DNA from: Choricystis sp. odSpoLacu1
Taxonomy: Eukaryota; Chlorophyta; Trebouxiophyceae
Reading direction: 5' to 3'
NCBI GenBank assembly: GCA_958009055.1
Contig: OY253652.1
Location: forward strand, 124,001 to 188,000
DNA: 64,000 bases
The notes below the pieces were generated by a model, which was not told where the DNA came from, searched no databases, and worked only from the letters and a program-made list of their open reading frames with translations. Below, piece after piece: positions 1-26,877 of the stretch (positions are counted from its first letter, which is position 1; each line of letters begins with the position of its first letter). A program made the position numbers and the translations under genes.

Positions 1-786
1 TGCTGCGCAAGTGCAGGTGCGCGATTGGGTTGGTTTTTGTCTGTTTTTGGCGCGGGTTTCGCGCGTGAGCACAACGACAGAGGGAGAGAGAGTGTGTGTG
101 TGCAGCCACGACCCCAACCACGCCCTTGAATCCCCTTACACCAGGCGCGCTACCAACTCTTCAACCCCGACATCGCGCGCCCTGCGCGCCGCGTCTACGT
201 CGGCGGCCTCCCCCCCGCCACCACGGACGCCGACCTCAGGGCGGCTGTCAACTCGTTGCTGGCGCTGGCGGGCGGGACGGTGGGGCCTGGAGCGCCGGTC
301 ACCGCTGCCAAAGTCTACCCCGACCGCGGCTACGCGTTTCTCGAGCTGCGCTCCGTCGAGGAAGCTTCCAACGCGCTCGCCCTGGACGGCGTCCCCTTTC
401 GCGAGGGGCGGCTGCGCGTGCGCCGCCCCAACAACTATGATGCGGCGGCGGCCGCGCTGCTGGGGCCGACGGATCCTGATCCCGGGGTGGACGCGGCCGG
501 ACTGGGCGCCGTGCGCACGACCGTCCCAGACGGCCCGCACAAAGTCTTTGTCGGTGGCCTCCCCTGCGACTGGGACGCCGGCCGCGTCAAAGCGCTGCTC
601 GCCCCCTACGGCCGCCTGGCTGCCTTCAACCTGGTCATGGACGCTGCCACCGGCAACTCACGTGGCTACGCGTTCTGCGAGTTTGGCGACGCGGGGGCGG
701 CCGACTACGCCATCGCGTCCCTCCACGGCTCCGCCGTCGGCCCCCGCCTCCTGACCGTCAAGCGCGCGCTGGAGCCGCCGATGTGA
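1..786 (+). CDS. U2AF2: U2AF65-like splicing factor, copy A (5' truncated by window edge)
   Basis: Only the last 16 bases of exon 1 (1-16), the 128-nt intron (17-144) and all of exon 2 (145-786) lie in the window. Exon 2 encodes both RRM domains and ends in TGA at 784-786, with the same sequence as the full copy at 7502-8646. The first exon lies to the left of the window, so it cannot be judged whether this copy is intact. Confidence 0.9.
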
Positions 787-2042
787 TGCATGGGAACGCT
801 GTGGTGGTGGTCTTTGGTTTGCTTGTGGGGCAAGAGAGAGGGAATGTTTTTTTTTGTGTGCAGTGGGAGGGGGTGGCGCGAACACACCGAGGACGCGTTG
901 TTTCGTGCCGCCCCCTCTTCTTCACCACCTTCCCTCTTTTTTTCGTCGCCCGTTTTTTTCTTTTCTTTTCGACACCCCACCCCACTGTTCGCAAAGAAAG
1001 CGCGCGGCACCACACGCCAAGACCACCACCACCCCACTGTTCGCAAAGAAAGCGCGCGGCACCACACGCCAAGACCACCACCACTGGCCGACCCTGTGTT
1101 GCCGTTTTTTTTTTTTGGGGGGGGTGCCGTGCATCGCTATGCCGAGACGCGGCGCCCCCCCCCCCCCCCCCCCTGTTTTTTCCAGCGTGCCTTTCGAGGA
1201 GGGTTTCACCCATGTTTCTTCGCCACCTTTTCCCTCCACACCCTTTGCAGCCTGCCACACGCCTCGACAAGACGGCACCCGCGCAGCCGACACACACTCC
1301 GTTTTTTTTCGTGTTGTGTTCGCCGCCCCCTCGTCCTTTTTTTGGTCACGCCTCGTCCTTCCCTCCCTGCCGCCCCCTCCCCCTCCCCTTGGCCTCCACC
1401 CCCATGCCTGTCACCCCCTCTTTTTTAACCACACAGTCCCCTAGGCGAGGCCACCTCTCATGGTGCACCACCTCTCCCACCCCACTCCCCCACACAAGAT
1501 CTTTTGAAGTTTCCACCCCCCTCCCCTGTTTGCACACACTCTTTCCTCAACCTCGCACCCCCCCCCTTCCTTTGCGTCAACCCTGTGGTTGATCATGTGC
1601 CGCACAACACCCCTCCCTTGCCCCCCATTCCTTTCTTTCAAAAACACCGACTTCTTTTTTGTGACGCCCCTTTTCCCCCCCCTCTTTTGTCCCCTCGACT
1701 TGCTTCCCACCCCCCCTTTTTTTCGCTCCCCACCCGCATGCAAACAAAAGTCATGGGCCGAATGTCTTGTTTTCTTCACAGAAAAAAAAATCCAACGTGA
1801 GAGTGGGAGAGAGGGGGACGAAACATGATTGCACAATGAAAAAAAAAAAACACACCACGCCAAAGAAAAAGGGGGGAGAAAAAGAAGCGCCACACAGCAC
1901 GGTGTCGCGCGTGGCACAACACAACACTCACACATACACTCAACCCGCACACGTTTTGTCAGCGTGTTGTGGGGGGGAAAAAGGGAGGGGGGGGGGGGGG
2001 GGTCACGTTTTTTTTTTTTTTTTTCACTCGCTCGCCTCTCTT
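787..2042. other. convergent 3' spacer, low complexity (same in each unit)
   Basis: This 1.26-kb stretch lies between the convergent ends of U2AF2 (+) and the DUF1295 gene (-), and recurs at 8647-9902, 16508-17764 and 24370-25626. It holds long mononucleotide runs: C19-20 near 1155-1173, G16 at 1987-2002 followed by T17 at 2008-2024, and many CT-rich tracts. I see no credible exon here. In particular there is no third RRM/UHM that could extend U2AF. Confidence 0.7.
980..1083. repeat. 52-bp direct repeat, two copies
   Basis: A 52-bp block beginning CCCCACTGTTCGC occurs twice head to tail (980-1031 and 1032-1083). The pair is kept in every unit at 8840-8943, 16701-16804 and 24563-24666, so the small duplication predates the large one. 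It lies in the non-coding 3' spacer and no function is evident. Confidence 0.9.
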
Positions 2043-2501
2043 TCAAGCGCCGCGCCGCGGCAGCGGCCAAAGCGCGGGTGTCCTGCCCGCATACTCGCTC
2101 CACCCCGCCAACCCCTCCATGCGCTTGCCCTGGTCCTCTACCTTGCGCGCGGAGTCGGTGATGAGGATGGAGATGAGGGCGGCGACGCCGACCGCGCCTG
2201 CGACAGCGAGCAGGGGGTGAGTCACCAGCGACGGGGCGCCCGCCAGGGCGGTGCCCGCCCAGAAGATGGCTTCACCCAGCAGGTTGGGCTGCCGGCAGAT
2301 GCGGTAGACGCAGCCAGAGGAGAAGCTGTGAGGGGAGGGGGAGAGAGGAGGATGGGTGGGGGTTGGTGTCGTTTCGGGCGTTCACTCTTTCTCTCCTCCC
2401 CCCACCTTCCTCTCCTCTCACTCACCCGCGAGGATTGCGCCACTTGTCCACCGCTTTGCAGATGTCGGCCGTCACCTCCAGCCACAGGCCGGCCCACGCG
2501 A
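2043..2501 (-). pseudogene. DUF1295/steroid-reductase-like gene, 5'-truncated copy (unit 1)
   Basis: It contains intact exon 4 (2325 down to 2043) and the last 76 bases of exon 3 (2501-2426) of the gene found whole at 25627-26877. Everything upstream, including the start codon, is replaced at the unit junction by antisense of a Pro-rich gene. The remnant keeps the conserved RQPNLLGE-type motif and the stop codon but has lost its promoter and membrane N-terminus, so it is unlikely to make a working enzyme. Confidence 0.85.
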
Positions 2502-3009
2502 GGCCGTGCGCGGCGCCCCCGCCGAATCGTTTTCAATTACGTTGGCCGCGGGAGGGGCGTCCCCGGCTGAGCCGGCGCCGCTGTCCAACCTGTGTGCGCA
2601 GACACCCCCCCGCGCGGCAGACGGCGACGCGGCCGCCGCCGATGGGGGCGCCCTGTTCGCGTCCCCGCCGGAGGGCGGGTCGTGCACCCTGGCCGTGCGC
2701 ACGACGGATGGACGCTGTGCATACGCTACCGTGGTGTCTGCCACGGCGGCCGCGCCGCCCCCCGCGCCGGGGGCGCTGCCGCCCGTGGCGCCGCCGCCGC
2801 CGCCAGCGCCTGTCGAGCCCGCCGAGCCTGCCGAGTCTGCCCAACCGCCCGCACCGCCGCGCACGGAGGCGTTGGGAGGGGGTGGCAAGCCAGCGACGGC
2901 GGTGGTGGGGCGTGGGGTTGCGGCGCCGCCGCCTCCGCCGCCCCCGCCCCCGCCCCCGCCGCCGCCGCCGCCGCCTCCCCCGCCGCACCATTCGCGCGCG
3001 GGAAGGTGA
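2502..3009 (+). pseudogene. 3' end of a Pro/Ala-rich, probably extracellular protein gene (unit 2)
   Basis: From the unit junction an open frame runs on the + strand to TGA at 3007-3009. It encodes about 168 residues: a Cys-containing segment (SNLCAQ, GGSCTL, DGRCAY), then Pro-rich stretches ending in a long polyproline run. The composition resembles the linker of the secreted protein at 42926-45942, so this is probably the C-terminal exon of a cell-wall type protein whose 5' part lies left of the array. The reading frame is inferred only from amino-acid plausibility. In this copy the frame is fused to antisense of DUF1295. Confidence 0.4.
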
Positions 3010-3355
3010 AGGTGCAGAGTATGTGTGTTGTGTTCGTGGAGCCCTGTGTTTTTTTGTTGTTTCATGTTCGAAAAAAATAGCACGAGGCTTTGAGGGGTGT
3101 GTGTGTTTGTGTCGCCCCCCCCTCTTTTCCACCCCCCTGCGTTTTGTGTCCCGTTCATCCCATGTCCCCTGTGATCAAAGAAAAGGTTCAAAGAAAAGCG
3201 CCAGTGGGCACTTTTGGTACAATGCTAACAGAGGGAAGAGCAAGAAAAAAACGCGGTTGAAACGTTTTTGACCGGGACACAAAAACCACAGACCCCCCCC
3301 CCTGATCTCTCCCTCTCCCTCCCTCCCTCGACGGCAGCGCCCCCCGAATCCAAAA
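3010..3355. other. convergent 3' spacer in each unit
   Basis: This 346-bp stretch lies between the Pro-rich gene tail (+) and the end of DIS3L2 (-), with equivalents at 10870-11215 and 18732-19078. It contains a GT-repeat and C-tracts. I see no gene. It should hold the 3' UTRs of the two convergent genes. Confidence 0.5.
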
Positions 3356-6300
3356 CTAATCCGCGCCCAGCAGATCATCCATCACGCCCGGCGTGCCCAC
3401 CGCGGGTGTGCCCACACTCTCCACCGCCGCCGCCCTCGCCCACCGCCCGCCGTGCGCCAGCACCGACGCCCGCACGTCGCCGCGCGTGCCCTTGACCGCG
3501 GTGATGACGACGGGGATGGGGGTCAACAGGGTGAGGGGCAGGGGCAGGGGGGCGGGGGCCAGGTTGTCTGGGTTGTGGAGGCGGCGTGGGGGGGGCGAGG
3601 CGTCGGCAGCGTCGCCGCGCCCCCCCCCACCTTCCTTTGGTGTCAACGTCAACACTCTGCCCTCCGCATCCCACGCACCCGCCACGTCATCCTGCTCCTC
3701 CACACTGATGCGAACGTCCACCCCCAGGGCGGGCACGTGGATGTCGAAGAAGCGGGCGCCCCCGACCGACGTGACGACGGCGACCGCGGCGCGCGGCACC
3801 TCGGACAGCATGGCCGCCAGGAACAGGCGCCCGCTGGCATCCTGCACGGACTTGGCGGCCGCCTTGCGCTCGTTGCAGTGTGCGGCGGCTTCTGCGACGG
3901 CGTCGGGGGGTGGGATGCCGTGCTCCGTGAGGATCGACGGAGGGACGATCGAAACTGCGCCCCCCTCCCCTCCTCCTCCTCCCGCCACCAGCGTCGCCGC
4001 CAGCATCCTGTGCACCAGCACGTCTGGATACCGCCGAATGGGGGACGTGAAGTGGGTGTACAGGCGGACGGCGAGGGCGTAGTGGGCGCAGGCGGAGCCA
4101 ACAGCGTCGGTGGTCGGGTGGTCATTGTCGCCGCCGCCAGTCGCGGCCGCGCCGTCGTCGCCACGACCACTACCCTCCCTCTTCCTCCCACCCCGCACCT
4201 CCCCCGCGCACACGTACGCCGCCACCTGCATGGGTTTGGTGCACATCAGCGTCAGGGCGGCGCCCCGGGCGGCGGCGGTGGCGATCGCCACCGCATCGCC
4301 CCCCGCCGCGGCCACCATCGCCGCGCGCGCGACCGACAGCGACGCGCGCAGCGCGCCCGCGCTGCCTGTGTCCACCTCCACCCCGGTCGCCGCCGCCACT
4401 GCGGCCGCCAGTTCGTCCAGCTTGCGTTGCGAGGGGGGCGGGTGGCGGCGCAGCAGGGCGACGGAGGGCGTCGCGGCAGCCAGGCGGCGCGCGGCGCACT
4501 CGTTGGCGAGCAGCATGCACTCTTCAACCAACTGGTTGGCGGCCTGGTGTTCGTGCGGCGTAGCCGCCAGAGGCGCCCCAGTCGTCGGACACAATGTGAA
4601 CACGAGCTTGGTGTTGTCGAGGCGGAGGGCGCCCGCCGCAAAGCGTGCGGCGCGGCGGGCAGAGGCAAGGGTCCACAGCGCGCGCGTGTCGGCCGCCAAC
4701 TCACGCCAGCCCGCGCGGGGGGGGGGCAGGCCGCTGGGCGCGCGCGTGGCGCGGGCGGCGTAGGCGGCTTCACCGGCGGCCGCGGCGGCGGCCAGGTCGG
4801 GGGCGTCGAGCATGGTCTGTGGTGGGGGGAAAGAGAGAAAAGTGATGTCATAAAAAGGAAAAAAAAACGACACACAAACCAAACCTCCCTGCATTCCCTC
4901 CCTTTCCCCTCACCTGGGCATCCGAGTACGCCAGCTTGGCCACCGACTGCATGATGGCGCGGTAGAAGACGGGTTGGCCGACGACCCGCCCCTCGCCGTC
5001 CAACCACACGTCGACCGAAAATGAAAACCGCTCCACCCCAGGCTCCAGCGAGCACAGCGACTCGCACAGCACGCGGGGCAGCATGGGCACGACCGAGGTG
5101 ACCAGGTAGACGGAGGTGGCGCGCGCGCGGGCGGCGGCGTCCAGGGGGCCGTTGGGAGGGACAAAGGCTGAAACGTCGGCGATGTGGACGCCGAGGCGGA
5201 AAGCCGCACCCGCAGGGGGCGGCACCCCATCCACGCCGGCGGGCACATCCTCCACCCTCTCCAGGCTCAGCGCGTCGTCCAGGTCGCGGGCGGTGGGGGG
5301 GTCGATGGAGAAGATGCGGCGGGAGGTGGTGAGGTCGATGCGACCGCGCGACGCCGCGGCGTCACCGCGCGCGCTCCACGGCAGCGCCGGCAGCTCGGCC
5401 AACGCCGCCGCCGGAAACTCGCCCGCATCCACGGCGGCAGCGGCCAGCAGGGCGTCGGTTTCGGCGGTGAGGTCGCCGGCGGGGCCCAGGATTGAAGTGA
5501 CGGTGGCGGGGGGGAGGCCCTCCCCGTGCGGCCACTCTCCATAGCAAGCTAAGAGCAACGTGCGTGGTGCATCAGCCTCGCCTGCGCGAGCTTCGGCCTT
5601 CAAGTCTGCGCGTGCCTCGGCCGGCAGGCCGGCGCCACGCACGATGGCGGGGGGGAGGCGGGGGTCGGTCGGGCGCAGGAGGGGGCCGCCGGCCGGCCCC
5701 TCCTCCAGCAACCCCACCCACCTCGCCCGCCGGGCGGACGGCGTGATGATTGCGACTACGTCTGCGGTGGCGCGCACGTCGGGACGGGCGGAGAGGCGGG
5801 CGGCCAGGGAAGCGAGCGCGCGGCGCGCGGCGCGCGTGGGGGCGGTGGTTGACGCCAGCGTGGCGCCGTCGTCATCGTCATTGCTGCTGCCATCGTCCAG
5901 CCGCACAGCAGCCGCAGCAGCAGCCGCCAGATCGGCGTCCGCCGCCGCTAGGGCGGCTCCTGTTGTTGCAGCCCCGGGCGTCTGAGGCGCGGGCGTGCCG
6001 CCGCGACTCACCCACCACGCCCCCTCCTCCCGCACCACGATGGCGACGACGTCGCCATCGATGGACCGGTTGGCGCCCACCGCACCACGCACCATGATGT
6101 CGGCGGGGAGGCTGGGCAGGGTCACGTACGCGACGTCCCGCCTGCCCGTCGCGGGCGCGCGCAGGGTGCCCGCAAACGCGGTGCCGGCGGCCAGGGCAGC
6201 GGTGACGTCGGTGGCAGGCCAGTGCGGCTTGAACCGGGGGCGGCGGGAGGAGGAGGGCGTGGGCGCGGGCGACGCGCGCGATGGGAGTGTCGTCGTCATG

Positions 6301-6641
6301 CGCGGGGGCGCGGGGGAGGCGCGGGACGCGCCCGACGCCCGCCGTCCAACCCTGGAACTGCTGACACTTCCATCGAACGGCACCGCGTGGCTGGACGCGG
6401 GCGTGACAGCGGGCGACAGCTCGCGCAACGGGGCCATGCCGGCATCTGAGGTGGGGGCCGCCCACCAGCCGGCGCTGGTGGCGCTGGCGGGGGTGCGGGG
6501 TTTGGAGGGACGGCGGGTCGTGGTGGTGGTGGCAAAGCCGGGGGGTGGGGCGTCGTCGTGGCTGACGGCGCGCGCGCCTCGCGGCGCGCGCGGTTCGCGG
6601 CGGGCAAAGCCGGGCGGGGCGTCATCGTGAGGGGAGGCCAT
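3356..6641 (-). CDS. DIS3L2: DIS3L2/SOV-type 3'-5' exoribonuclease (RNase II/R family), unit 2
   Basis: There are two exons: 6641-4914 (576 codons) and 4816-3356 (486 codons plus TAG). They are joined by a 97-nt intron with GTGAGG donor and CAG acceptor, giving 1062 aa. A Ser/Pro-rich N-terminus is followed by cold-shock-like domains (SIDGDVVAI) and the RNB catalytic domain. The acidic active-site motif IDPPTARDLDDA (about residues 446-457) is complete. Further signatures are GVHIADVSAFV, ATSVYLV.SVVPMLPR, LLRRHPPP and YTHFTSPIRRYPDVLVHR, which match DIS3L2 rather than exosome DIS3; there is no PIN domain. The C-terminal S1 region is short and diverged. The family degrades (often uridylated) RNA in the cytoplasm independently of the exosome. 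The gene is divergent from U2AF2, with 860 bp between starts. Confidence 0.92.
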
Positions 6642-7501
6642 GGTGTGTATGTGTTTGAAGGCTTGTGGAGAGGAAGGGAACAGGGCGCGCCTGGTCTTCC
6701 TTTCCTCCTCTCTGCGCTCGAGAGAGGGGCGGTCGAGAGTTGTGAGGCTGTCTGTGCTCAGCGTCTCACCCCGCAGCGCGCGGTCAGACGGTCACTCGTT
6801 TCGCCGCTCTTTTTATTTATTATTATTATTTTTTTTCGCTCTTTGGGCCTTGGGCGCGGTGTTGCTCTGCCCCCTTCCCCCCGCATCGTGAAAGCCCCAG
6901 AGTGCGGTCTGAGCCACGTCCACGACACCGCCTTTTCTGCCCTTTTTCCCCACGCGTCGGTCCCCAGACGCCCCACGCCTGGGCGCTCGCGCCCGCTGCC
7001 TTCCCGCCCTCTCGTCCCGCGTCGACCCTGCCTCGGCCGCGGCGCCAACGCACACAGGTACGACACACGGCACACAGGAGGTGTTGGCACCGGGCATGGA
7101 AGGCAGGCCCCAGCAGAGGCAGGGCGCGGCACACGTTTTTTTTTGTTTCCGCATTGGCTCGCTGCGACGTCGCAGCCAGTGGGGTGCGCTTTTTCCCCTC
7201 CCACCCTCTTCCGCCCACGCACGCGCCCACGCTCCCGCACGTGGCCTTCACTGCTGACTTCAACTGGCTGCTGGGAGGGGCGGACGCCGCAGTTGGCCGG
7301 TGGGCTGGTGGGCAGCGCTGGTTTGTCACCTTAGTTTTTCGACCGTCGGAACCAAAAAAACGCTGCATGGAGCAAAAACCCACGTGCACGCGACCTAACC
7401 CGCCCTCCCGCCCTTTTTCCACCCTCTCCACAGCCCTCCCTCCCAGCCACAAGCCGCGAAAACAAGATCGGCACTTGAAAGTCTTAGCCTTTTTCAAAAA
7501 C
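6642..7501. promoter_or_regulatory. shared upstream region of DIS3L2 (-) and U2AF2 (+)
   Basis: This 860-bp region, also at 14502-15361 and 22365-23224, separates two divergent starts. Visible elements are an AT-rich stretch near 6810-6836, a perfect 16-bp palindrome at 7161-7176 with a GACGTC (CRE-like) core, an inverted CCAAT (ATTGG at 7153-7157) just before it, and CACGTG at 7238-7243 and 7381-7386. A good donor (CACAG/GTACGA, near 7057) and a CT-rich acceptor ending at 7433 suggest a 5'-UTR intron for U2AF2. Promoter function is inferred from position. Confidence 0.45.
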
Positions 7502-8646
7502 ATGGGCGACTGGCAAGCCCCCCCCCCCGGCTCCACCGTCGCCTCGGTCGCGGCCGCGGCCGCCGCGGCCGCCGCCGCCGCCAGCCTCTCCCCCCGCGCC
7601 CTGGCGGCCGCCCTGGCCGGCACCGCCCCCCCCCCCTGCTCCGGTGGCGGCGGTGCCCTGTCCCCCCCCCACGGCTCTTCATCCGACGGCCTGCCCGCGT
7701 TAGCCGACGCCCTGTCCCTGGACGCCCCCCCGGCGCCCGTCCCTTTGCGCCCTCCCCCGCGCCCCTTGCCCAACGACATTCCGTCTTTGCAAACGCGCGT
7801 GCTGGAGCTGGAGGCGGAGGCGACCCGGCTGGCGACGACGCTGGCTCATTATCGGCAGAATGCTGCGCAAGTGCAGGTGCGCGATTGGGTTGGTTTTTGT
7901 CTGTTTTTGGCGCGGGTTTCGCGCGTGAGCACAACGACAGAGGGAGAGAGAGTGTGTGTGTGCAGCCACGACCCCAACCACGCCCTTGAATCCCCTTACA
8001 CCAGGCGCGCTACCAACTCTTCAACCCCGACATCGCGCGCCCTGCGCGCCGCGTCTACGTCGGCGGCCTCCCCCCCGCCACCACGGACGCCGACCTCAGG
8101 GCGGCTGTCAACTCGTTGCTGGCGCTGGCGGGCGGGACGGTGGGGCCTGGAGCGCCGGTCACCGCTGCCAAAGTCTACCCCGACCGCGGCTACGCGTTTC
8201 TCGAGCTGCGCTCCGTCGAGGAAGCTTCCAACGCGCTCGCCCTGGACGGCGTCCCCTTTCGCGAGGGGCGGCTGCGCGTGCGCCGCCCCAACAACTATGA
8301 TGCGGCGGCGGCCGCGCTGCTGGGGCCGACGGATCCTGATCCCGGGGTGGACGCGGCCGGACTGGGCGCCGTGCGCACGACCGTCCCAGACGGCCCGCAC
8401 AAAGTCTTTGTCGGTGGCCTCCCCTGCGACTGGGACGCCGGCCGCGTCAAAGCGCTGCTCGCCCCCTACGGCCGCCTGGCTGCCTTCAACCTGGTCATGG
8501 ACGCTGCCACCGGCAACTCACGTGGCTACGCGTTCTGCGAGTTTGGCGACGCGGGGGCGGCCGACTACGCCATCGCGTCCCTCCACGGCTCCGCCGTCGG
8601 CCCCCGCCTCCTGACCGTCAAGCGCGCGCTGGAGCCGCCGATGTGA
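7502..8646 (+). CDS. U2AF2: U2AF65-like large splicing factor subunit, copy B (two RRMs, no UHM)
   Basis: Exon 1 is 7502-7876 (125 codons) and exon 2 is 8005-8646 (213 codons plus TGA). The 128-nt intron ends CACCAG and is phase 0. The 338-aa product starts with GDWQAPPPG, which resembles the Trp-containing U2AF35-binding segment of U2AF65, then has a poly-Ala/Pro region. RRM1 (RNP2 VYVGGL about 142-147, RNP1 RGYAFLEL about 186-193) and RRM2 (VFVGGL about 259-264, SRGYAFCEF about 297-305) follow. The linker ends VRTTVPDGPHKVFVGG, as in U2AF65. These tandem RRMs bind the polypyrimidine tract during 3' splice-site recognition. There is no RS domain in this frame, and the protein stops right after RRM2, so the C-terminal UHM is missing. 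The frame stays open upstream to an acceptor at 7433, so an extra N-terminal exon cannot be excluded. Confidence 0.9.
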
Positions 8647-9902
8647 TGCATGGGAACGCTGTGGTGGTGGTCTTTGGTTTGCTTGTGGGGCAAGAGAGAG
8701 GGAATGTTTTTTTTTGTGTGCAGTGGGAGGGGGTGGCGCGAACACACCGAGGACGCGTTGTTTCGTGCCGCCCCCTCTTCTTCACCACCTTCCCTCTTTT
8801 TTTCGTCGCCCGTTTTTTTCTTTTCTTTTCGACACCCCACCCCACTGTTCGCAAAGAAAGCGCGCGGCACCACACGCCAAGACCACCACCACCCCACTGT
8901 TCGCAAAGAAAGCGCGCGGCACCACACGCCAAGACCACCACCACTGGCCGACCCTGTGTTGCCGTTTTTTTTTTTTGGGGGGGGTGCCGTGCATCGCTAT
9001 GCCGAGACGCGGCGCCCCCCCCCCCCCCCCCCCTGTTTTTTCCAGCGTGCCTTTCGAGGAGGGTTTCACCCATGTTTCTTCGCCACCTTTTCCCTCCACA
9101 CCCTTTGCAGCCTGCCACACGCCTCGACAAGACGGCACCCGCGCAGCCGACACACACTCCGTTTTTTTTCGTGTTGTGTTCGCCGCCCCCTCGTCCTTTT
9201 TTTGGTCACGCCTCGTCCTTCCCTCCCTGCCGCCCCCTCCCCCTCCCCTTGGCCTCCACCCCCATGCCTGTCACCCCCTCTTTTTTAACCACACAGTCCC
9301 CTAGGCGAGGCCACCTCTCATGGTGCACCACCTCTCCCACCCCACTCCCCCACACAAGATCTTTTGAAGTTTCCACCCCCCTCCCCTGTTTGCACACACT
9401 CTTTCCTCAACCTCGCACCCCCCCCCTTCCTTTGCGTCAACCCTGTGGTTGATCATGTGCCGCACAACACCCCTCCCTTGCCCCCCATTCCTTTCTTTCA
9501 AAAACACCGACTTCTTTTTTGTGACGCCCCTTTTCCCCCCCCTCTTTTGTCCCCTCGACTTGCTTCCCACCCCCCCTTTTTTTCGCTCCCCACCCGCATG
9601 CAAACAAAAGTCATGGGCCGAATGTCTTGTTTTCTTCACAGAAAAAAAAATCCAACGTGAGAGTGGGAGAGAGGGGGACGAAACATGATTGCACAATGAA
9701 AAAAAAAAAACACACCACGCCAAAGAAAAAGGGGGGAGAAAAAGAAGCGCCACACAGCACGGTGTCGCGCGTGGCACAACACAACACTCACACATACACT
9801 CAACCCGCACACGTTTTGTCAGCGTGTTGTGGGGGGGAAAAAGGGAGGGGGGGGGGGGGGGGTCACGTTTTTTTTTTTTTTTTTCACTCGCTCGCCTCTC
9901 TT

Positions 9903-10869: not shown

Positions 10870-11215
10870 AGGTGCAGAGTATGTGTGTTGTGTTCGTGGA
10901 GCCCTGTGTTTTTTTGTTGTTTCATGTTCGAAAAAAATAGCACGAGGCTTTGAGGGGTGTGTGTGTTTGTGTCGCCCCCCCCTCTTTTCCACCCCCCTGC
11001 GTTTTGTGTCCCGTTCATCCCATGTCCCCTGTGATCAAAGAAAAGGTTCAAAGAAAAGCGCCAGTGGGCACTTTTGGTACAATGCTAACAGAGGGAAGAG
11101 CAAGAAAAAAACGCGGTTGAAACGTTTTTGACCGGGACACAAAAACCACAGACCCCCCCCCCTGATCTCTCCCTCTCCCTCCCTCCCTCGACGGCAGCGC
11201 CCCCCGAATCCAAAA

Positions 11216-16507: not shown

Positions 16508-17764
16508 TGCATGGGAACGCTGTGGTGGTGGTCTTTGGTTTGCTTGTGGGGCAAGAGAGAGGGAATGTTTTTTTTTGTGTGCAGTGGGAGGGGGTGGCGC
16601 GAACACACCGAGGACGCGTTGTTTCGTGCCGCCCCCTCTTCTTCACCACCTTCCCTCTTTTTTTCGTCGCCCGTTTTTTTCTTTTCTTTTCGACACCCCA
16701 CCCCACTGTTCGCAAAGAAAGCGCGCGGCACCACACGCCAAGACCACCACCACCCCACTGTTCGCAAAGAAAGCGCGCGGCACCACACGCCAAGACCACC
16801 ACCACTGGCCGACCCTGTGTTGCCGTTTTTTTTTTTTGGGGGGGGTGCCGTGCATCGCTATGCCGAGACGCGGCGCCCCCCCCCCCCCCCCCCCCTGTTT
16901 TTTCCAGCGTGCCTTTCGAGGAGGGTTTCACCCATGTTTCTTCGCCACCTTTTCCCTCCACACCCTTTGCAGCCTGCCACACGCCTCGACAAGACGGCAC
17001 CCGCGCAGCCGACACACACTCCGTTTTTTTTCGTGTTGTGTTCGCCGCCCCCTCGTCCTTTTTTTGGTCACGCCTCGTCCTTCCCTCCCTGCCGCCCCCT
17101 CCCCCTCCCCTTGGCCTCCACCCCCATGCCTGTCACCCCCTCTTTTTTAACCACACAGTCCCCTAGGCGAGGCCACCTCTCATGGTGCACCACCTCTCCC
17201 ACCCCACTCCCCCACACAAGATCTTTTGAAGTTTCCACCCCCCTCCCCTGTTTGCACACACTCTTTCCTCAACCTCGCACCCCCCCCCTTCCTTTGCGTC
17301 AACCCTGTGGTTGATCATGTGCCGCACAACACCCCTCCCTTGCCCCCCATTCCTTTCTTTCAAAAACACCGACTTCTTTTTTGTGACGCCCCTTTTCCCC
17401 CCCCTCTTTTGTCCCCTCGACTTGCTTCCCACCCCCCCTTTTTTTCGCTCCCCACCCGCATGCAAACAAAAGTCATGGGCCGAATGTCTTGTTTTCTTCA
17501 CAGAAAAAAAAATCCAACGTGAGAGTGGGAGAGAGGGGGACGAAACATGATTGCACAATGAAAAAAAAAAAACACACCACGCCAAAGAAAAAGGGGGGAG
17601 AAAAAGAAGCGCCACACAGCACGGTGTCGCGCGTGGCACAACACAACACTCACACATACACTCAACCCGCACACGTTTTGTCAGCGTGTTGTGGGGGGGA
17701 AAAAGGGAGGGGGGGGGGGGGGGGTCACGTTTTTTTTTTTTTTTTTCACTCGCTCGCCTCTCTT

Positions 17765-18223
17765 TCAAGCGCCGCGCCGCGGCAGCGGCCAAAGCGCGGG
17801 TGTCCTGCCCGCATACTCGCTCCACCCCGCCAACCCCTCCATGCGCTTGCCCTGGTCCTCTACCTTGCGCGCGGAGTCGGTGATGAGGATGGAGATGAGG
17901 GCGGCGACGCCGACCGCGCCTGCGACAGCGAGCAGGGGGTGAGTCACCAGCGACGGGGCGCCCGCCAGGGCGGTGCCCGCCCAGAAGATGGCTTCACCCA
18001 GCAGGTTGGGCTGCCGGCAGATGCGGTAGACGCAGCCAGAGGAGAAGCTGTGAGGGGAGGGGGAGAGAGGAGGATGGGTGGGGGTTGGTGTCGTTTCGGG
18101 CGTTCACTCTTTCTCTCCTCCCCCCACCTTCCTCTCCTCTCACTCACCCGCGAGGATTGCGCCACTTGTCCACCGCTTTGCAGATGTCGGCCGTCACCTC
18201 CAGCCACAGGCCGGCCCACGCGA
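17765..18223 (-). pseudogene. DUF1295-like gene, 5'-truncated copy (unit 3)
   Basis: Exon 4 lies at 18047-17765 and the exon 3 remnant at 18223-18148. It is cut at the junction with unit 4, as in the other truncated copies. Confidence 0.85.
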
Positions 18224-18731
18224 GGCCGTGCGCGGCGCCCCCGCCGAATCGTTTTCAATTACGTTGGCCGCGGGAGGGGCGTCCCCGGCTGAGCCGGCGC
18301 CGCTGTCCAACCTGTGTGCGCAGACACCCCCCCGCGCGGCAGACGGCGACGCGGCCGCCGCCGATGGGGGCGCCCTGTTCGCGTCCCCGCCGGAGGGCGG
18401 GTCGTGCACCCTGGCCGTGCGCACGACGGATGGACGCTGTGCATACGCTACCGTGGTGTCTGCCACGGCGGCCGCGCCGCCCCCCGCGCCGGGGGCGCTG
18501 CCGCCCGTGGCGCCGCCGCCGCCGCCAGCGCCTGTCGAGCCCGCCGAGCCTGCCGAGTCTGCCCAACCGCCCGCACCGCCGCGCACGGAGGCGTTGGGAG
18601 GGGGTGGCAAGCCAGCGACGGCGGTGGTGGGGCGTGGGGTTGCGGCGCCGCCGCCTCCGCCGCCCCCGCCCCCGCCCCCGCCGCCGCCGCCGCCGCCTCC
18701 CCCGCCGCACCATTCGCGCGCGGGAAGGTGA
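18224..18731 (+). pseudogene. 3' end of Pro/Ala-rich protein gene (unit 4)
   Basis: This is the third copy of the fragment at 2502-3009, with the same open frame from the junction to TGA at 18729-18731. A nearby base change (18818) lies in the spacer after it. Confidence 0.4.
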
Positions 18732-19078
18732 AGGTGCAGAGTATGTGTGTTGTGTTCGTGGAGCCCTGTGTTTTTTTGTTGTTTCATGTTCGAAAAAAAT
18801 AGCACGAGGCTTTGAGGTGTGTGTGTGTTTGTGTCGCCCCCCCCTCTTTTCCACCCCCCTGCGTTTTGTGTCCCGTTCATCCCATGTCCCCTGTGATCAA
18901 AGAAAAGGTTCAAAGAAAAGCGCCAGTGGGCACTTTTGGTACAATGCTAACAGAGGGAAGAGCAAGAAAAAAACGCGGTTGAAACGTTTTTGACCGGGAC
19001 ACAAAAACCACAGACCCCCCCCCCCTGATCTCTCCCTCTCCCTCCCTCCCTCGACGGCAGCGCCCCCCGAATCCAAAA

Positions 19079-22000
19079 CTAATCCGCGCCCAGCAGATCA
19101 TCCATCACGCCCGGCGTGCCCACCGCGGGTGTGCCCACACTCTCCACCGCCGCCGCCCTCGCCCACCGCCCGCCGTGCGCCAGCACCGACGCCCGCACGT
19201 CGCCGCGCGTGCCCTTGACCGCGGTGATGACGACGGGGATGGGGGTCAACAGGGTGAGGGGCAGGGGCAGGGGGGCGGGGGCCAGGTTGTCTGGGTTGTG
19301 GAGGCGGCGTGGGGGGGGCGAGGCGTCGGCAGCGTCGCCGCGCCCCCCCCCACCTTCCTTTGGTGTCAACGTCAACACTCTGCCCTCCGCATCCCACGCA
19401 CCCGCCACGTCATCCTGCTCCTCCACACTGATGCGAACGTCCACCCCCAGGGCGGGCACGTGGATGTCGAAGAAGCGGGCGCCCCCGACCGACGTGACGA
19501 CGGCGACCGCGGCGCGCGGCACCTCGGACAGCATGGCCGCCAGGAACAGGCGCCCGCTGGCATCCTGCACGGACTTGGCGGCCGCCTTGCGCTCGTTGCA
19601 GTGTGCGGCGGCTTCTGCGACGGCGTCGGGGGGTGGGATGCCGTGCTCCGTGAGGATCGACGGAGGGACGATCGAAACTGCGCCCCCCTCCCCTCCTCCT
19701 CCTCCCGCCACCAGCGTCGCCGCCAGCATCCTGTGCACCAGCACGTCTGGATACCGCCGAATGGGGGACGTGAAGTGGGTGTACAGGCGGACGGCGAGGG
19801 CGTAGTGGGCGCAGGCGGAGCCAACAGCGTCGGTGGTCGGGTGGTCATTGTCGCCGCCGCCAGTCGCGGCCGCGCCGTCGTCGCCACGACCACTACCCTC
19901 CCTCTTCCTCCCACCCCGCACCTCCCCCGCGCACACGTACGCCGCCACCTGCATGGGTTTGGTGCACATCAGCGTCAGGGCGGCGCCCCGGGCGGCGGCG
20001 GTGGCGATCGCCACCGCATCGCCCCCCGCCGCGGCCACCATCGCCGCGCGCGCGACCGACAGCGACGCGCGCAGCGCGCCCGCGCTGCCTGTGTCCACCT
20101 CCACCCCGGTCGCCGCCGCCACTGCGGCCGCCAGTTCGTCCAGCTTGCGTTGCGAGGGGGGCGGGTGGCGGCGCAGCAGGGCGACGGAGGGCGTCGCGGC
20201 AGCCAGGCGGCGCGCGGCGCACTCGTTGGCGAGCAGCATGCACTCTTCAACCAACTGGTTGGCGGCCTGGTGTTCGTGCGGCGTAGCCGCCAGAGGCGCC
20301 CCAGTCGTCGGACACAATGTGAACACGAGCTTGGTGTTGTCGAGGCGGAGGGCGCCCGCCGCAAAGCGTGCGGCGCGGCGGGCAGAGGCAAGGGTCCACA
20401 GCGCGCGCGTGTCGGCCGCCAACTCACGCCAGCCCGCGCGGGGGGGGGGCAGGCCGCTGGGCGCGCGCGTGGCGCGGGCGGCGTAGGCGGCTTCACCGGC
20501 GGCCGCGGCGGCGGCCAGGTCGGGGGCGTCGAGCATGGTCTGTGGTGGGGGGAAAGAGAGAAAAGTGATGTCATAAAAAGGAAAAAAAAACGACACACAA
20601 ACCAAACCTCCCTGCATTCCCTCCCTTTCCCCTCACCTGGGCATCCGAGTACGCCAGCTTGGCCACCGACTGCATGATGGCGCGGTAGAAGACGGGTTGG
20701 CCGACGACCCGCCCCTCGCCGTCCAACCACACGTCGACCGAAAATGAAAACCGCTCCACCCCAGGCTCCAGCGAGCACAGCGACTCGCACAGCACGCGGG
20801 GCAGCATGGGCACGACCGAGGTGACCAGGTAGACGGAGGTGGCGCGCGCGCGGGCGGCGGCGTCCAGGGGGCCGTTGGGAGGGACAAAGGCTGAAACGTC
20901 GGCGATGTGGACGCCGAGGCGGAAAGCCGCACCCGCAGGGGGCGGCACCCCATCCACGCCGGCGGGCACATCCTCCACCCTCTCCAGGCTCAGCGCGTCG
21001 TCCAGGTCGCGGGCGGTGGGGGGGTCGATGGAGAAGATGCGGCGGGAGGTGGTGAGGTCGATGCGACCGCGCGACGCCGCGGCGTCACCGCGCGCGCTCC
21101 ACGGCAGCGCCGGCAGCTCGGCCAACGCCGCCGCCGGAAACTCGCCCGCATCCACGGCGGCAGCGGCCAGCAGGGCGTCGGTTTCGGCGGTGAGGTCGCC
21201 GGCGGGGCCCAGGATTGAAGTGACGGTGGCGGGGGGGAGGCCCTCCCCGTGCGGCCACTCTCCATAGCAAGCTAAGAGCAACGTGCGTGGTGCATCAGCC
21301 TCGCCTGCGCGAGCTTCGGCCTTCAAGTCTGCGCGTGCCTCGGCCGGCAGGCCGGCGCCACGCACGATGGCGGGGGGGAGGCGGGGGTCGGTCGGGCGCA
21401 GGAGGGGGCCGCCGGCCGGCCCCTCCTCCAGCAACCCCACCCACCTCGCCCGCCGGGCGGACGGCGTGATGATTGCGACTACGTCTGCGGTGGCGCGCAC
21501 GTCGGGACGGGCGGAGAGGCGGGCGGCCAGGGAAGCGAGCGCGCGGCGCGCGGCGCGCGTGGGGGCGGTGGTTGACGCCAGCGTGGCGCCGTCGTCATCG
21601 TCATTGCTGCTGCCATCGTCCAGCCGCACAGCAGCCGCAGCAGCAGCCGCCAGATCGGCGTCCGCCGCCGCTAGGGCGGCTCCTGTTGTTGCAGCCCCGG
21701 GCGTCTGAGGCGCGGGCGTGCCGCCGCGACTCACCCACCACGCCCCCTCCTCCCGCACCACGATGGCGACGACGTCGCCATCGATGGACCGGTTGGCGCC
21801 CACCGCACCACGCACCATGATGTCGGCGGGGAGGCTGGGCAGGGTCACGTACGCGACGTCCCGCCTGCCCGTCGCGGGCGCGCGCAGGGTGCCCGCAAAC
21901 GCGGTGCCGGCGGCCAGGGCAGCGGTGACGTCGGTGGCAGGCCAGTGCGGCTTGAACCGGGGGCGGCGGGAGGAGGAGGGCGTGGGCGCGGGCGACGCGC

Positions 22001-22364
22001 GCGATGGGAGTGTCGTCGTCATGCGCGGGGGCGCGGGGGAGGCGCGGGACGCGCCCGACGCCCGCCGTCCAACCCTGGAACTGCTGACACTTCCATCGAA
22101 CGGCACCGCGTGGCTGGACGCGGGCGTGACAGCGGGCGACAGCTCGCGCAACGGGGCCATGCCGGCATCTGAGGTGGGGGCCGCCCACCAGCCGGCGCTG
22201 GTGGCGCTGGCGGGGGTGCGGGGTTTGGAGGGACGGCGGGTCGTGGTGGTGGTGGCAAAGCCGGGGGGTGGGGCGTCGTCGTGGCTGACGGCGCGCGCGC
22301 CTCGCGGCGCGCGCGGTTCGCGGCGGGCAAAGCCGGGCGGGGCGTCATCGTGAGGGGAGGCCAT
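19079..22364 (-). CDS. DIS3L2: DIS3L2-type exoribonuclease, unit 4
   Basis: Exons 22364-20637 and 20539-19079 encode the same 1062-aa enzyme as the other two copies, with an intact RNB active site. This makes three complete, apparently functional DIS3L2 genes in the window. Confidence 0.92.
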
Positions 22365-23224
22365 GGTGTGTATGTGTTTGAAGGCTTGTGGAGAGGAAGG
22401 GAACAGGGCGCGCCTGGTCTTCCTTTCCTCCTCTCTGCGCTCGAGAGAGGGGCGGTCGAGAGTTGTGAGGCTGTCTGTGCTCAGCGTCTCACCCCGCAGC
22501 GCGCGGTCAGACGGTCACTCGTTTCGCCGCTCTTTTTATTTATTATTATTATTTTTTTTCGCTCTTTGGGCCTTGGGCGCGGTGTTGCTCTGCCCCCTTC
22601 CCCCCGCATCGTGAAAGCCCCAGAGTGCGGTCTGAGCCACGTCCACGACACCGCCTTTTCTGCCCTTTTTCCCCACGCGTCGGTCCCCAGACGCCCCACG
22701 CCTGGGCGCTCGCGCCCGCTGCCTTCCCGCCCTCTCGTCCCGCGTCGACCCTGCCTCGGCCGCGGCGCCAACGCACACAGGTACGACACACGGCACACAG
22801 GAGGTGTTGGCACCGGGCATGGAAGGCAGGCCCCAGCAGAGGCAGGGCGCGGCACACGTTTTTTTTTGTTTCCGCATTGGCTCGCTGCGACGTCGCAGCC
22901 AGTGGGGTGCGCTTTTTCCCCTCCCACCCTCTTCCGCCCACGCACGCGCCCACGCTCCCGCACGTGGCCTTCACTGCTGACTTCAACTGGCTGCTGGGAG
23001 GGGCGGACGCCGCAGTTGGCCGGTGGGCTGGTGGGCAGCGCTGGTTTGTCACCTTAGTTTTTCGACCGTCGGAACCAAAAAAACGCTGCATGGAGCAAAA
23101 ACCCACGTGCACGCGACCTAACCCGCCCTCCCGCCCTTTTTCCACCCTCTCCACAGCCCTCCCTCCCAGCCACAAGCCGCGAAAACAAGATCGGCACTTG
23201 AAAGTCTTAGCCTTTTTCAAAAAC

Positions 23225-24369
23225 ATGGGCGACTGGCAAGCCCCCCCCCCCGGCTCCACCGTCGCCTCGGTCGCGGCCGCGGCCGCCGCGGCCGCCGCCG
23301 CCGCCAGCCTCTCCCCCCGCGCCCTGGCGGCCGCCCTGGCCGGCACCGCCCCCCCCCCCTGCTCCGGTGGCGGCGGTGCCCTGTCCCCCCCCCACGGCTC
23401 TTCATCCGACGGCCTGCCCGCGTTAGCCGACGCCCTGTCCCTGGACGCCCCCCCGGCGCCCGTCCCTTTGCGCCCTCCCCCGCGCCCCTTGCCCAACGAC
23501 ATTCCGTCTTTGCAAACGCGCGTGCTGGAGCTGGAGGCGGAGGCGACCCGGCTGGCGACGACGCTGGCTCATTATCGGCAGAATGCTGCGCAAGTGCAGG
23601 TGCGCGATTGGGTTGGTTTTTGTCTGTTTTTGGCGCGGGTTTCGCGCGTGAGCACAACGACAGAGGGAGAGAGAGTGTGTGTGTGCAGCCACGACCCCAA
23701 CCACGCCCTTGAATCCCCTTACACCAGGCGCGCTACCAACTCTTCAACCCCGACATCGCGCGCCCTGCGCGCCGCGTCTACGTCGGCGGCCTCCCCCCCG
23801 CCACCACGGACGCCGACCTCAGGGCGGCTGTCAACTCGTTGCTGGCGCTGGCGGGCGGGACGGTGGGGCCTGGAGCGCCGGTCACCGCTGCCAAAGTCTA
23901 CCCCGACCGCGGCTACGCGTTTCTCGAGCTGCGCTCCGTCGAGGAAGCTTCCAACGCGCTCGCCCTGGACGGCGTCCCCTTTCGCGAGGGGCGGCTGCGC
24001 GTGCGCCGCCCCAACAACTATGATGCGGCGGCGGCCGCGCTGCTGGGGCCGACGGATCCTGATCCCGGGGTGGACGCGGCCGGACTGGGCGCCGTGCGCA
24101 CGACCGTCCCAGACGGCCCGCACAAAGTCTTTGTCGGTGGCCTCCCCTGCGACTGGGACGCCGGCCGCGTCAAAGCGCTGCTCGCCCCCTACGGCCGCCT
24201 GGCTGCCTTCAACCTGGTCATGGACGCTGCCACCGGCAACTCACGTGGCTACGCGTTCTGCGAGTTTGGCGACGCGGGGGCGGCCGACTACGCCATCGCG
24301 TCCCTCCACGGCTCCGCCGTCGGCCCCCGCCTCCTGACCGTCAAGCGCGCGCTGGAGCCGCCGATGTGA
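23225..24369 (+). CDS. U2AF2: U2AF65-like splicing factor, copy D
   Basis: Exons are 23225-23599 and 23728-24369. The C-tract in exon 1 has 11 C, so the frame is intact, and the encoded 338-aa protein equals copy B. This is the copy next to the intact right flank of the array, so it may sit in the ancestral position. Confidence 0.9.
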
Positions 24370-25626
24370 TGCATGGGAACGCTGTGGTGGTGGTCTTTGG
24401 TTTGCTTGTGGGGCAAGAGAGAGGGAATGTTTTTTTTTGTGTGCAGTGGGAGGGGGTGGCGCGAACACACCGAGGACGCGTTGTTTCGTGCCGCCCCCTC
24501 TTCTTCACCACCTTCCCTCTTTTTTTCGTCGCCCGTTTTTTTCTTTTCTTTTCGACACCCCACCCCACTGTTCGCAAAGAAAGCGCGCGGCACCACACGC
24601 CAAGACCACCACCACCCCACTGTTCGCAAAGAAAGCGCGCGGCACCACACGCCAAGACCACCACCACTGGCCGACCCTGTGTTGCCGTTTTTTTTTTTTG
24701 GGGGGGGTGCCGTGCATCGCTATGCCGAGACGCGGCGCCCCCCCCCCCCCCCCCCCCTGTTTTTTCCAGCGTGCCTTTCGAGGAGGGTTTCACCCATGTT
24801 TCTTCGCCACCTTTTCCCTCCACACCCTTTGCAGCCTGCCACACGCCTCGACAAGACGGCACCCGCGCAGCCGACACACACTCCGTTTTTTTTCGTGTTG
24901 TGTTCGCCGCCCCCTCGTCCTTTTTTTGGTCACGCCTCGTCCTTCCCTCCCTGCCGCCCCCTCCCCCTCCCCTTGGCCTCCACCCCCATGCCTGTCACCC
25001 CCTCTTTTTTAACCACACAGTCCCCTAGGCGAGGCCACCTCTCATGGTGCACCACCTCTCCCACCCCACTCCCCCACACAAGATCTTTTGAAGTTTTCAC
25101 CCCCCTCCCCTGTTTGCACACACTCTTTCCTCAACCTCGCACACCCCCCCTTCCTTTGCGTCAACCCTGTGGTTGATCATGTGCCGCACAACACCCCTCC
25201 CTTGCCCCCCATTCCTTTCTTTCAAAAACACCGACTTCTTTTTTGTGACGCCCCTTTTCCCCCCCCTCTTTTGTCCCCTCGACTTGCTTCCCACCCCCCC
25301 TTTTTTTCGCTCCCCACCCGCATGCAAACAAAAGTCATGGGCCGAATGTCTTGTTTTCTTCACAGAAAAAAAAATCCAACGTGAGAGTGGGAGAGAGGGG
25401 GACGAAACATGATTGCACAATGAAAAAAAAAAAACACACCACGCCAAAGAAAAAGGGGGGAGAAAAAGAAGCGCCACACAGCACGGTGTCGCGCGTGGCA
25501 CAACACAACACTCACACATACACTCAACCCGCACACGTTTTGTCAGCGTGTTGTGGGGGGGAAAAAGGGAGGGGGGGGGGGGGGGGTCACGTTTTTTTTT
25601 TTTTTTTTCACTCGCTCGCCTCTCTT

Positions 25627-26877
25627 TCAAGCGCCGCGCCGCGGCAGCGGCCAAAGCGCGGGTGTCCTGCCCGCATACTCGCTCCACCCCGCCAACCCCT
25701 CCATGCGCTTGCCCTGGTCCTCTACCTTGCGCGCGGAGTCGGTGATGAGGATGGAGATGAGGGCGGCGACGCCGACCGCGCCTGCGACAGCGAGCAGGGG
25801 GTGAGTCACCAGCGACGGGGCGCCCGCCAGGGCGGTGCCCGCCCAGAAGATGGCTTCACCCAGCAGGTTGGGCTGCCGGCAGATGCGGTAGACGCAGCCA
25901 GAGGAGAAGCTGTGAGGGGAGGGGGAGAGAGGAGGATGGGTGGGGGTTGGTGTCGTTTCGGGCGTTCACTCTTTCTCTCCTCCCCCCACCTTCCTCTCCT
26001 CTCACTCACCCGCGAGGATTGCGCCACTTGTCCACCGCTTTGCAGATGTCGGCCGTCACCTCCAGCCACAGGCCGGCCCACGCGATGGCCACGCCGGCGC
26101 GGGAGAGGCGGTCAGAGGGGGAACCCGGGGCGGGGGCGGACGGCGCGGCGGCGAGGGCCCAGGTTGGAACGAACATGGCCACGTAGAGAGAGACAACGGA
26201 CGCCCATATGACCAGCTTGTTGATCAGGGTGAGGCGGGAGGCTTTGCGGTCGATGCCCTGGCGTTTGTGGCTGAGGGAGGGAAGGGTGGGTGAGCGTGGG
26301 TGAGGGTGGGGGGGGGTGGGGGCGCTGGAAACATAAAAAACCTCGACTCTTCCCTCCCCTCCTTCCATCCCTCCACTCACCGGTACGTCGCCAGCAGCAG
26401 GTCCCTCGCCAGCAGGAAGCCCGCCATCCACACGCCGTGCGCGGCAAACGCGCCCAGCGCGCAGCGCGCGAGGGGGGTCACCCCGCGCGCGGCCAGGGCG
26501 CGGGAGGCGACGACAACTTGCAGGATGCAGGCGAGGCCATAGCCTGGTTGGTTGGTGTGTGTGTGTGGGAGGAAGGGCAAGGTTGGGTTGGATTTTTCCC
26601 CAGGCGCGCTCTGTTTCGCCGACGTCAGCATGTGGGGGCGTCGTCGTTTATTTTTCTCTCTCGCGCGCTCTTCCTCCCCCGCGCGCTCTTGCCCTCCCAC
26701 CCCTTCCCCCCACAACACACACTCACCCACAGAGATGAACCACACGGGGCGCACAAAGCCCAGGGCGGACCCCGCGAAGGATGCGGCCACGAGTGCGGGC
26801 AGCACCTCCGTGAACGCGACGGGGGGGGGAAGGGCGGGCGGGGCAGCCCCGAACAGGCTTTTGAGGAAGGCGGCCAT
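25627..26877 (-). CDS. DUF1295 / steroid 5-alpha-reductase-like membrane enzyme, intact
   Basis: The four exons are 26877-26727, 26543-26381, 26270-26010 and 25909-25627. All introns are GTGAGT or GT...CAG with consistent phases (1, 2, 2), giving 285 aa. Hydrophobic helices are spread through the protein. The C-terminal part has the DUF1295 hallmark (VYRICRQPNLLGEAIFWAG, equivalent to WRYSRHPNYFGE), and the end (ARKVEDQGKRM..LAGWSEYAGRTPALWPLP) also fits. The family is related to steroid reductases and isoprenylcysteine methyltransferase-like membrane enzymes; the substrate here is unknown. The right edge of the tandem array (26085) cuts exon 3, so the three other copies are truncated. The gene is divergent from the membrane protein at 26993. 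Confidence 0.75.

What the first reader, a model, noticed from the sequence alone, without database searches (positions are those of the whole stretch)
1..26085. Recent tandem amplification of a DIS3L2 + U2AF65 gene pair
At least 3.3 direct copies of a 7.86-kb unit each carry a complete exoribonuclease gene and a complete splicing-factor gene. Copies differ by only a few bases but have private substitutions (16187, 18818, 25096, 25143), so they are separate copies. Increased dosage of these two RNA-processing genes is unusual and may reflect selection, or an unstable array of variable copy number.
Basis: partly seen in the sequence, partly recalled or inferred. Interest (0 to 1): 0.8.

Follow-up and report, generated by a model that had tools for sequence, protein, structure and literature searches.

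The report
Four-copy tandem gene duplication in alga
A 7.9-kb stretch of a sponge-dwelling green alga's chromosome, holding an RNA-degrading enzyme gene and a splicing-factor-like gene, is assembled as four nearly identical side-by-side copies, most likely a recent and mechanistically ordinary duplication that began at an 18-letter repeat.

Summary
The array is real in the assembly and fully bounded: four copies, not 3.3, at C4:118624-150085, from 5,376 bp before the window to window 26085. The genome matches the Choricystis sp. cobiont of Spongilla lacustris (HiFi about 16x, Hi-C). An 18-bp sequence, seen in 144 kb only at the array's two edges and three junctions, marks the breakpoint. It sits inside two other genes, so other copies carry orphan 3' pieces of them. 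This suggests short-homology duplication, then unequal exchange (inferred).

Corrections: the second gene is not U2AF65. Canonical U2AF65 lies on C6; the array gene belongs to a separate green-algal paralog clade with RRM1 and RRM2 but no C-terminal UHM (0 of 37 evaluable proteins; tree 100/100). As assembled, copy 3 of it is frameshifted at a C-run. The DIS3L2-like gene is intact in 4 of 4 copies; an exon-2 search found no fifth.

Selection and dosage are untested. Copies 1 and 2 are identical, so the exact number rests on the assembler. The array is ordinary; the UHM-less paralog family is the more interesting by-product.

The parts
1..2483 (.). Array copy 1, part inside the window (the copy starts 5,376 bp before the window, at C4:118624)
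   Evidence: BLAST self-comparison and alignment of C4:44001-188000; identical to copy 2
2484..10343 (.). Array copy 2, 7,860 bp
10344..18205 (.). Array copy 3, 7,862 bp; private substitution at 16187; one extra C in each of two C-runs (one of them shared with copy 4)
18206..26067 (.). Array copy 4, 7,862 bp before the terminal 18-mer; private substitutions 18818, 25097, 25143
2484..2501 (+). 18-bp breakpoint motif ACAGGCCGGCCCACGCGA at the copy 1/2 junction
10344..10361 (+). 18-bp breakpoint motif at the copy 2/3 junction
18206..18223 (+). 18-bp breakpoint motif at the copy 3/4 junction
26068..26085 (+). 18-bp breakpoint motif at the right edge of the array (the left edge is at C4:118624, outside the window)
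3356..6641 (-). DIS3L2-like exoribonuclease, copy 2 (1,062 aa; intron 4817-4913)
   Evidence: Pfam RNB and OB_Dis3; best PDB match DIS3L2
11216..14501 (-). DIS3L2-like gene, copy 3 (intact)
19079..22364 (-). DIS3L2-like gene, copy 4 (intact). Copy 1 of this gene is intact too but lies outside the window
6642..7501 (.). 860 bp between the divergent start codons, wholly inside the unit (possible shared promoter; inferred)
   Evidence: coordinates
1..786 (+). UHM-less U2AF65-like gene, copy 1 (gene runs from -358 to 786; intact)
7502..8646 (+). UHM-less U2AF65-like gene, copy 2 (338 aa; intron 7877-8004)
   Evidence: PDB match to U2AF65 RRM1-RRM2
15362..16507 (+). UHM-less U2AF65-like gene, copy 3: frameshifted as assembled (C-run of 12 instead of 11 in exon 1), plus the 16187 substitution
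23225..24369 (+). UHM-less U2AF65-like gene, copy 4 (intact)
25627..26877 (-). Intact gene Y (DUF1295 membrane-type protein, 285 aa, exons joined by eye) that spans the right edge of the array
2043..2501 (-). Orphan 3' fragment of gene Y, copy 1
9903..10361 (-). Orphan 3' fragment of gene Y, copy 2
17765..18223 (-). Orphan 3' fragment of gene Y, copy 3
2484..3009 (+). Orphan 3' fragment of gene X, copy 2 (predicted Pro/Ala-rich ORF whose 5' part lies left of the array)
10344..10869 (+). Orphan 3' fragment of gene X, copy 3
18206..18731 (+). Orphan 3' fragment of gene X, copy 4

Best explanation
This is a recent tandem quadruplication of one 7.86-kb chromosomal segment in the nuclear genome of a Choricystis green alga living in a freshwater sponge. 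An 18-bp sequence was present in two nearby genes, X and Y, 7.86 kb apart. A break or stalled fork was repaired or restarted through that short homology and doubled the segment between them (inferred). Unequal exchange between the now long repeats raised the number to four in the assembled molecule (inferred). The unit contains two complete divergent genes with the region between their starts: a DIS3L2-type 3'-5' exoribonuclease and a U2AF65-related RNA-binding protein that lacks the UHM (shown by sequence). It also carries 3' pieces of X and Y, orphaned in three copies each, while one full X frame at the left edge and one full Y at the right edge remain. The likely effect is higher dosage of the two complete genes and easy gain or loss of copies; neither effect was shown here.
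For: Self-comparison and extension beyond the window give four copies with unique flanks. The 18-mer is at the left edge, all three junctions and the right edge and nowhere else on either strand in 144 kb; in 112.5 kb of flanks, 9 exact 18-bp pairs at 5-10 kb spacing were found, all of low complexity (fewer than 12 distinct trinucleotides; the motif has 14), and 5 base-composition shuffles of the left flank gave none. Gene X's frame enters from the left flank, gene Y's from the right flank. No ATG-started frame continues X or Y through the junction examined. No Ns. Assembly QV is 51.1, about 0.25 expected errors in 31 kb, against four substitutions seen. Own-genome protein searches found 4 array copies of each gene and otherwise only diverged relatives (for DIS3L2 exon 2 only). 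Yeast work describes duplication through 5-20 bp of microhomology followed by copy-number change through homologous recombination (PMC4232551; abstract, introduction and passages seen).
Against: No reads were available. Coverage was only about 16x and copies 1 and 2 are identical, so the copy number is not secure. Of the 7 differing columns three are C-run length changes, which may be consensus errors. The initiating mechanism (break-induced replication, end joining or slippage) cannot be told from one junction type.
Confidence: 0.85

Rival explanations
1. Assembly artefact: one or two real copies were unrolled into four by the assembler.
For: Low coverage (about 16x), copies 1 and 2 100% identical, length differences only in C-runs. 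Another tandem array and a near-perfect palindrome lie elsewhere, which could point to a systematic problem.
Against: A junction sequence must normally exist in reads for the assembler to make one, so at least one tandem duplication is likely (inference). Copies 3 and 4 carry private substitutions. Unique flanks lie on both sides, and the breakpoint motif fits a known kind of event.
Confidence: 0.12
2. Adaptive amplification: selection in the sponge or in the laboratory favoured more DIS3L2 and more of the U2AF65-like protein.
For: The unit holds two complete genes with the region between their starts. All four DIS3L2 frames are intact, with no differing column inside them.
Against: Recent near-identical copies would be intact without selection. 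One U2AF65-like copy is frameshifted as assembled. No expression, fitness or population data. The segment's limits are set by the 18-mer, not by the genes.
Confidence: 0.12
3. A mobile element or programmed amplification system built the array.
For: Head-to-tail identical units can arise from rolling-circle or element-driven processes (general knowledge).
Against: The first and last 100 bp of the unit share no exact inverted match longer than 6 bp. The edges lie inside two ordinary genes and share only 18 bp. None of the 6 window proteins or exons with a Pfam hit is a mobile-element protein; not every ORF of the unit was tested.
Confidence: 0.03

Closest known systems
CUP1 tandem arrays of Saccharomyces cerevisiae (PMC4232551; abstract, introduction and passages seen)
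   Same: A single-copy ancestor, a first duplication at non-recurrent breakpoints, then change of copy number by homologous recombination in the array.
   Different: CUP1 junction repeats are three bp or less, here 18 bp, which falls in the 5-20 bp range that paper gives for microhomology-mediated break-induced replication. CUP1 copy number has a known trait (copper resistance); here none is known.
Short-repeat-flanked tandem amplification, 'SRS + unit + SRS' (PMC8831618; abstract and passages seen)
   Same: Amplified unit flanked by a short repeat (screened at 2-200 bp) and explained by unequal sister-chromatid exchange.
   Different: Its median short repeat is 2-11 bp and most of its units are under 5 kb; here 18 bp and 7.86 kb, and the short repeat is single at each boundary.
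DIS3L2 exoribonucleases
   Same: OB_Dis3 (CSD2) and RNB domains, best PDB match DIS3L2 with the DP.TARDLDDALS stretch kept; some green-algal relatives carry that name.
   Different: Only its copy number is unusual.
U2AF65 (U2AF2) large subunit
   Same: RRM1 and RRM2 resemble U2AF65 (E 6.9e-46 to a PDB chain).
   Different: No UHM, no RS-rich N-terminus; separate 100/100 clade of green-algal proteins; canonical U2AF65 is encoded elsewhere in the same genome.

Membership tests
Recent tandem segmental duplication of the short-homology type | Head-to-tail near-identical units with unique flanks | tested here: met
   Four copies, about 99.9% identity, unique flanks
Recent tandem segmental duplication of the short-homology type | Short homology shared by both edges and the junctions | tested here: met
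   18-bp motif at 5 of 5 boundaries and nowhere else in 144 kb
Recent tandem segmental duplication of the short-homology type | Copy number varies between individuals | not testable with these tools
   One assembly, no reads or other strains
DIS3L2 | RNB and CSD domains, closer to DIS3L2 than to DIS3/RRP44, no PIN domain | tested here: met
   Pfam gives RNB and OB_Dis3 only; PDB E 1.2e-90 for DIS3L2 against 2e-46 for DIS3L1 and 2.4e-46 for RRP44
DIS3L2 | Catalytic aspartates of the RNB domain | tested here: met
   IDPPTARDLDDALS aligned to the DIS3L2 chain 8e29_A; which residues are catalytic is recalled
DIS3L2 | 3'-5' exoribonuclease activity on uridylated RNA (recalled) | not testable with these tools
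   No biochemistry here
U2AF65 | Tandem RRM1-RRM2 of U2AF65 type | tested here: met
U2AF65 | C-terminal UHM | tested here: not met
   Stop directly after RRM2. Best UHM profile score in six frames of unit 2 plus about 2 kb is 5.9 bits (E 0.11) against 153 bits at the C6 locus, which is itself in the profile. 0 of 37 evaluable rows (array protein and 36 hits; 6 of 43 not evaluable, some hits are metagenome fragments) have one; 12 of 12 canonical controls do, 8 of which helped build the profile
U2AF65 | RS-rich N-terminus | tested here: not met
   2 RS/SR dipeptides in the array protein against 17 in the C6 U2AF65; 10 of 12 canonical controls have 9 or more, two short models (P0121, P0044) have 2

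The most novel reading that the evidence does not exclude
The amplified gene belongs to a deeply conserved green-algal family that I did not find described: U2AF65-type RRM1-RRM2 proteins with a conserved N-terminal stretch (looks like a short coiled coil; not tested) but without UHM or RS region. They would bind polypyrimidine RNA without recruiting the branch-point machinery, as competitors of U2AF65 or as regulators outside splicing. In this symbiont their dosage, together with that of the neighbouring DIS3L2 decay enzyme, would be tuned by a labile array.
Probability: 0.12. Interest if true: 0.6.

Novelty: new member of a known kind. Interest (0 to 1): 0.3.

Why it matters
As a structural variant it is a clean, fully bounded example of short-homology tandem amplification in a compact algal genome, and a ready marker for copy-number variation among sponge symbionts. 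If the copy number proves variable and expressed, it would tie the dosage of RNA decay and RNA binding to a symbiotic lifestyle. Separately, the UHM-less U2AF65 paralog family, found beside canonical U2AF65 in several green algae, gives splicing researchers a natural separation of the RNA-binding and partner-binding halves of U2AF65.

Tried and rejected
Organism: Medakamo hakoo was my first guess. It was rejected because its assembly has 18 contigs, 15.8 Mb and 72.7% GC (PMC9871001, passages). Choricystis ucChoSpea1.1 fits in chromosome lengths, about 70% GC, mitochondrion 34.74 kb (here 34,737 bp) and plastid 91.10 kb (here 91,072 bp).

A UHM exon further downstream in the unit: none by profile search of six frames, and relatives end near the same place.

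Literature: searches for a UHM-less U2AF65 in green algae (12 of 37, 7 of 7, 8 of 1,272 and 8 of 27 papers listed) and for DIS3L2 duplication or Choricystis copy number (10 of 1,416 and 8 of 10,738 listed) showed nothing on the point in the listings. A survey of plant U2AF65A (PMC8635922, passages) reports single copies in its three algae. The library holds open-licence papers only.

Rough age, not used as evidence: mean pairwise 2.5e-4 substitutions per site (12 differences over 6 pairs) gives about 1e5 generations at 1e-9 per site per generation (rate recalled, gene conversion ignored).
Full report
WHAT WAS CHECKED. BLAST of the window against itself shows direct repeats at shifts of 7,860, 15,721 and 23,583 bp. 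The window is G000:C4:124001-188000 in a 14.59-Mb, 19-contig genome. I fetched the 80 kb to its left and repeated the comparison: the array runs from C4:118624 to 150085 and has four copies, 7,860, 7,860, 7,862 and 7,862 bp, plus a closing 18 bp. The flanks are unique in the 144 kb and there are no Ns.

ORGANISM. Telomere repeats TTAGGG stand at the five chromosome ends I read: both ends of C4, both ends of C12 and the start of C1. Contig lengths (C1 1.515 Mb, C4 1.225 Mb, C12 0.684 Mb, C18 34,737 bp, C19 91,072 bp) and 70% GC in the C4 stretch match the Choricystis sp. assembly ucChoSpea1.1 from the sponge Spongilla lacustris: HiFi at about 16x, Hi-C, hifiasm, 16 chromosomes, QV 51.1 (PMC12141999, passages and section 6). 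The identification is by these matches, not by a name in the data.

DIFFERENCES BETWEEN COPIES. Seven columns differ: four substitutions and three length changes in C-runs. Copies 1 and 2 are identical. One C-run change is shared by copies 3 and 4, one is private to copy 3 and one to copy 4. At QV 51 about 0.25 errors are expected in 31 kb, so the substitutions are probably real, though repeats and C-runs may be worse than the genome average. Because copies 1 and 2 cannot be told apart, three distinguishable versions stand in the assembly and the fourth copy rests on the assembler.

BREAKPOINT. The sequence ACAGGCCGGCCCACGCGA stands at the left edge, at the three junctions and at the right edge, and nowhere else on either strand of the 144 kb. 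In 74.6 kb and 37.9 kb of flanking sequence I counted exact 18-bp direct pairs 5-10 kb apart: 6 and 3, all of low complexity; five base-composition shuffles of the left flank gave 0. On the left edge the motif lies in a forward open frame (gene X, Pro/Ala-rich, no family tested positive) that runs on into the unit; on the right edge it lies in a coding exon of gene Y, a DUF1295 protein on the minus strand. So copies 2-4 start with a 3' piece of X, and copies 1-3 end with a 3' piece of Y. At the copy 2/3 junction no ATG-started frame continues X or Y across it; open frames in other phases exist, as is usual at 70% GC. The first and last 100 bp of the unit share no exact inverted match over 6 bp. 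This is the anatomy expected if a short homology in two genes mediated the first duplication and the long repeats then expanded by unequal exchange. Both mechanistic steps are inferred.

GENES. The DIS3L2-like gene (minus strand, one intron, 1,062 aa) has RNB and OB_Dis3 domains, its best PDB matches are DIS3L2 (1.2e-90, against 2e-46 for DIS3L1 and 2.4e-46 for RRP44), and some green-algal relatives are named DIS3-like exonuclease 2 (179 matches, 120 listed). All four copies are intact. A search of the genome with its second exon finds the four array copies and a diverged match on C5; the same search with the first exon gave no usable answer. The DNA search with the whole unit also gave a 122-bp, 86% match on C7 to the stretch that holds the start of this gene, which I did not follow up.

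The second gene (plus strand, one intron, 338 aa) matches RRM1-RRM2 of U2AF65, but its stop comes right after RRM2, and a UHM profile finds nothing convincing in six frames of a unit plus about 2 kb (best 5.9 bits; 153 bits at the C6 locus, which is itself in the profile). The genome has a full U2AF65 on C6 (514-aa frame, RS-rich, two RRMs and UHM). The protein search returned 272 relatives, 120 listed. Of the array protein and the 42 best hits (43 rows), 37 had a recognisable RRM2 end and none of those has a C-terminal UHM; 6 could not be judged, and several of the rest are short metagenome fragments. Of 12 canonical proteins, 12 have it, but 8 of those 12 were among the sequences that built the profile. 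A tree of 24 UHM-less and 22 canonical proteins (my choice from the lists, not all hits) separates the two with 100/100 support; the array protein is in the UHM-less group. Myrmecia bisecta, Micractinium conductrix, Chlorella sorokiniana, Chlorella vulgaris (its short protein P0038 could not be judged for UHM) and Scenedesmus sp. NREL 46B-D3 appear in both lists by species name.

In copy 3 the second gene is frameshifted as assembled: a run of 12 instead of 11 C in exon 1, stop after 223 residues; its private substitution would be Pro233Thr in the unshifted frame. If the shift is real, one copy is already decaying, which speaks against strong selection for four working copies; if it is a consensus error, it says nothing.

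CONTEXT. C12:626842-653706 is another tandem array (period about 9.62 kb, 2.8 copies, 99.9% identity) with a 2-kb inverted piece at its left, carrying a class II (D, K and N type) tRNA synthetase, a thioredoxin-like and a Phi_1 sequence. C4:73630-77818 is a 4.2-kb palindrome with lactate/malate dehydrogenase sequence.

KNOWN OR NEW. Duplications through 5-20 bp of microhomology, and arrays that then change by homologous recombination, are described for yeast (PMC4232551, abstract, introduction and passages), and short-repeat-flanked tandem units are surveyed across eukaryotes (PMC8831618, abstract and passages). This array is a new member of that kind. The listings showed no paper on the UHM-less U2AF65 family; they are capped lists from open-licence papers only.

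VERDICT. Real in the assembly, most likely real in the cell, mechanistically ordinary; gene name corrected; functional consequence unknown. Interest 0.3, most of it for the paralog family.

Noticed in passing
G000:C12:624158-653706 (loci L018-L021): A second tandem array, period about 9.62 kb, 2.8 copies, 99.9% identical, with a 2-kb inverted copy to its left; carries a class II tRNA synthetase (D/K/N type), a thioredoxin-like ORF and a Phi_1 ORF.
   Followed up: partly
G000:C4:73630-77818 (L011, L012): A 4.2-kb near-perfect palindrome (99.2%, arms adjoining) holding lactate/malate dehydrogenase sequence; an inverted duplication or a fold-back assembly artefact.
   Followed up: partly
G000:C6:962326-962973 (L034:1144-2688): Canonical U2AF65 of this alga as one 514-aa open frame, with a long proline-rich linker of repeated GGLPPPPPLPP-type units between RRM2 and UHM.
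   Followed up: partly
Proteins P0014 and P0040: Two database proteins carry chorismate lyase (PF01947) together with the UHM-less U2AF65-like part (P0014 is named chorismate lyase isoform B, Chlorella sorokiniana); either neighbouring genes fused by annotation or a real fusion.
   Followed up: no
G000:C7:193283-193404 (L001): A 122-bp stretch, 86% identical to the part of the unit that holds the start of the DIS3L2-like gene (window about 6486-6610).
   Followed up: no
window 43529-44250: Dense GC-rich minisatellites (periods 3-51 bp) over about 700 bp.
   Followed up: no
window 973-1084, 8833-8944, 16694-16805, 24556-24667: A 52-bp tandem duplication 3' of the U2AF65-like gene is present in each of the four copies, so it probably predates the amplification.
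   Followed up: partly
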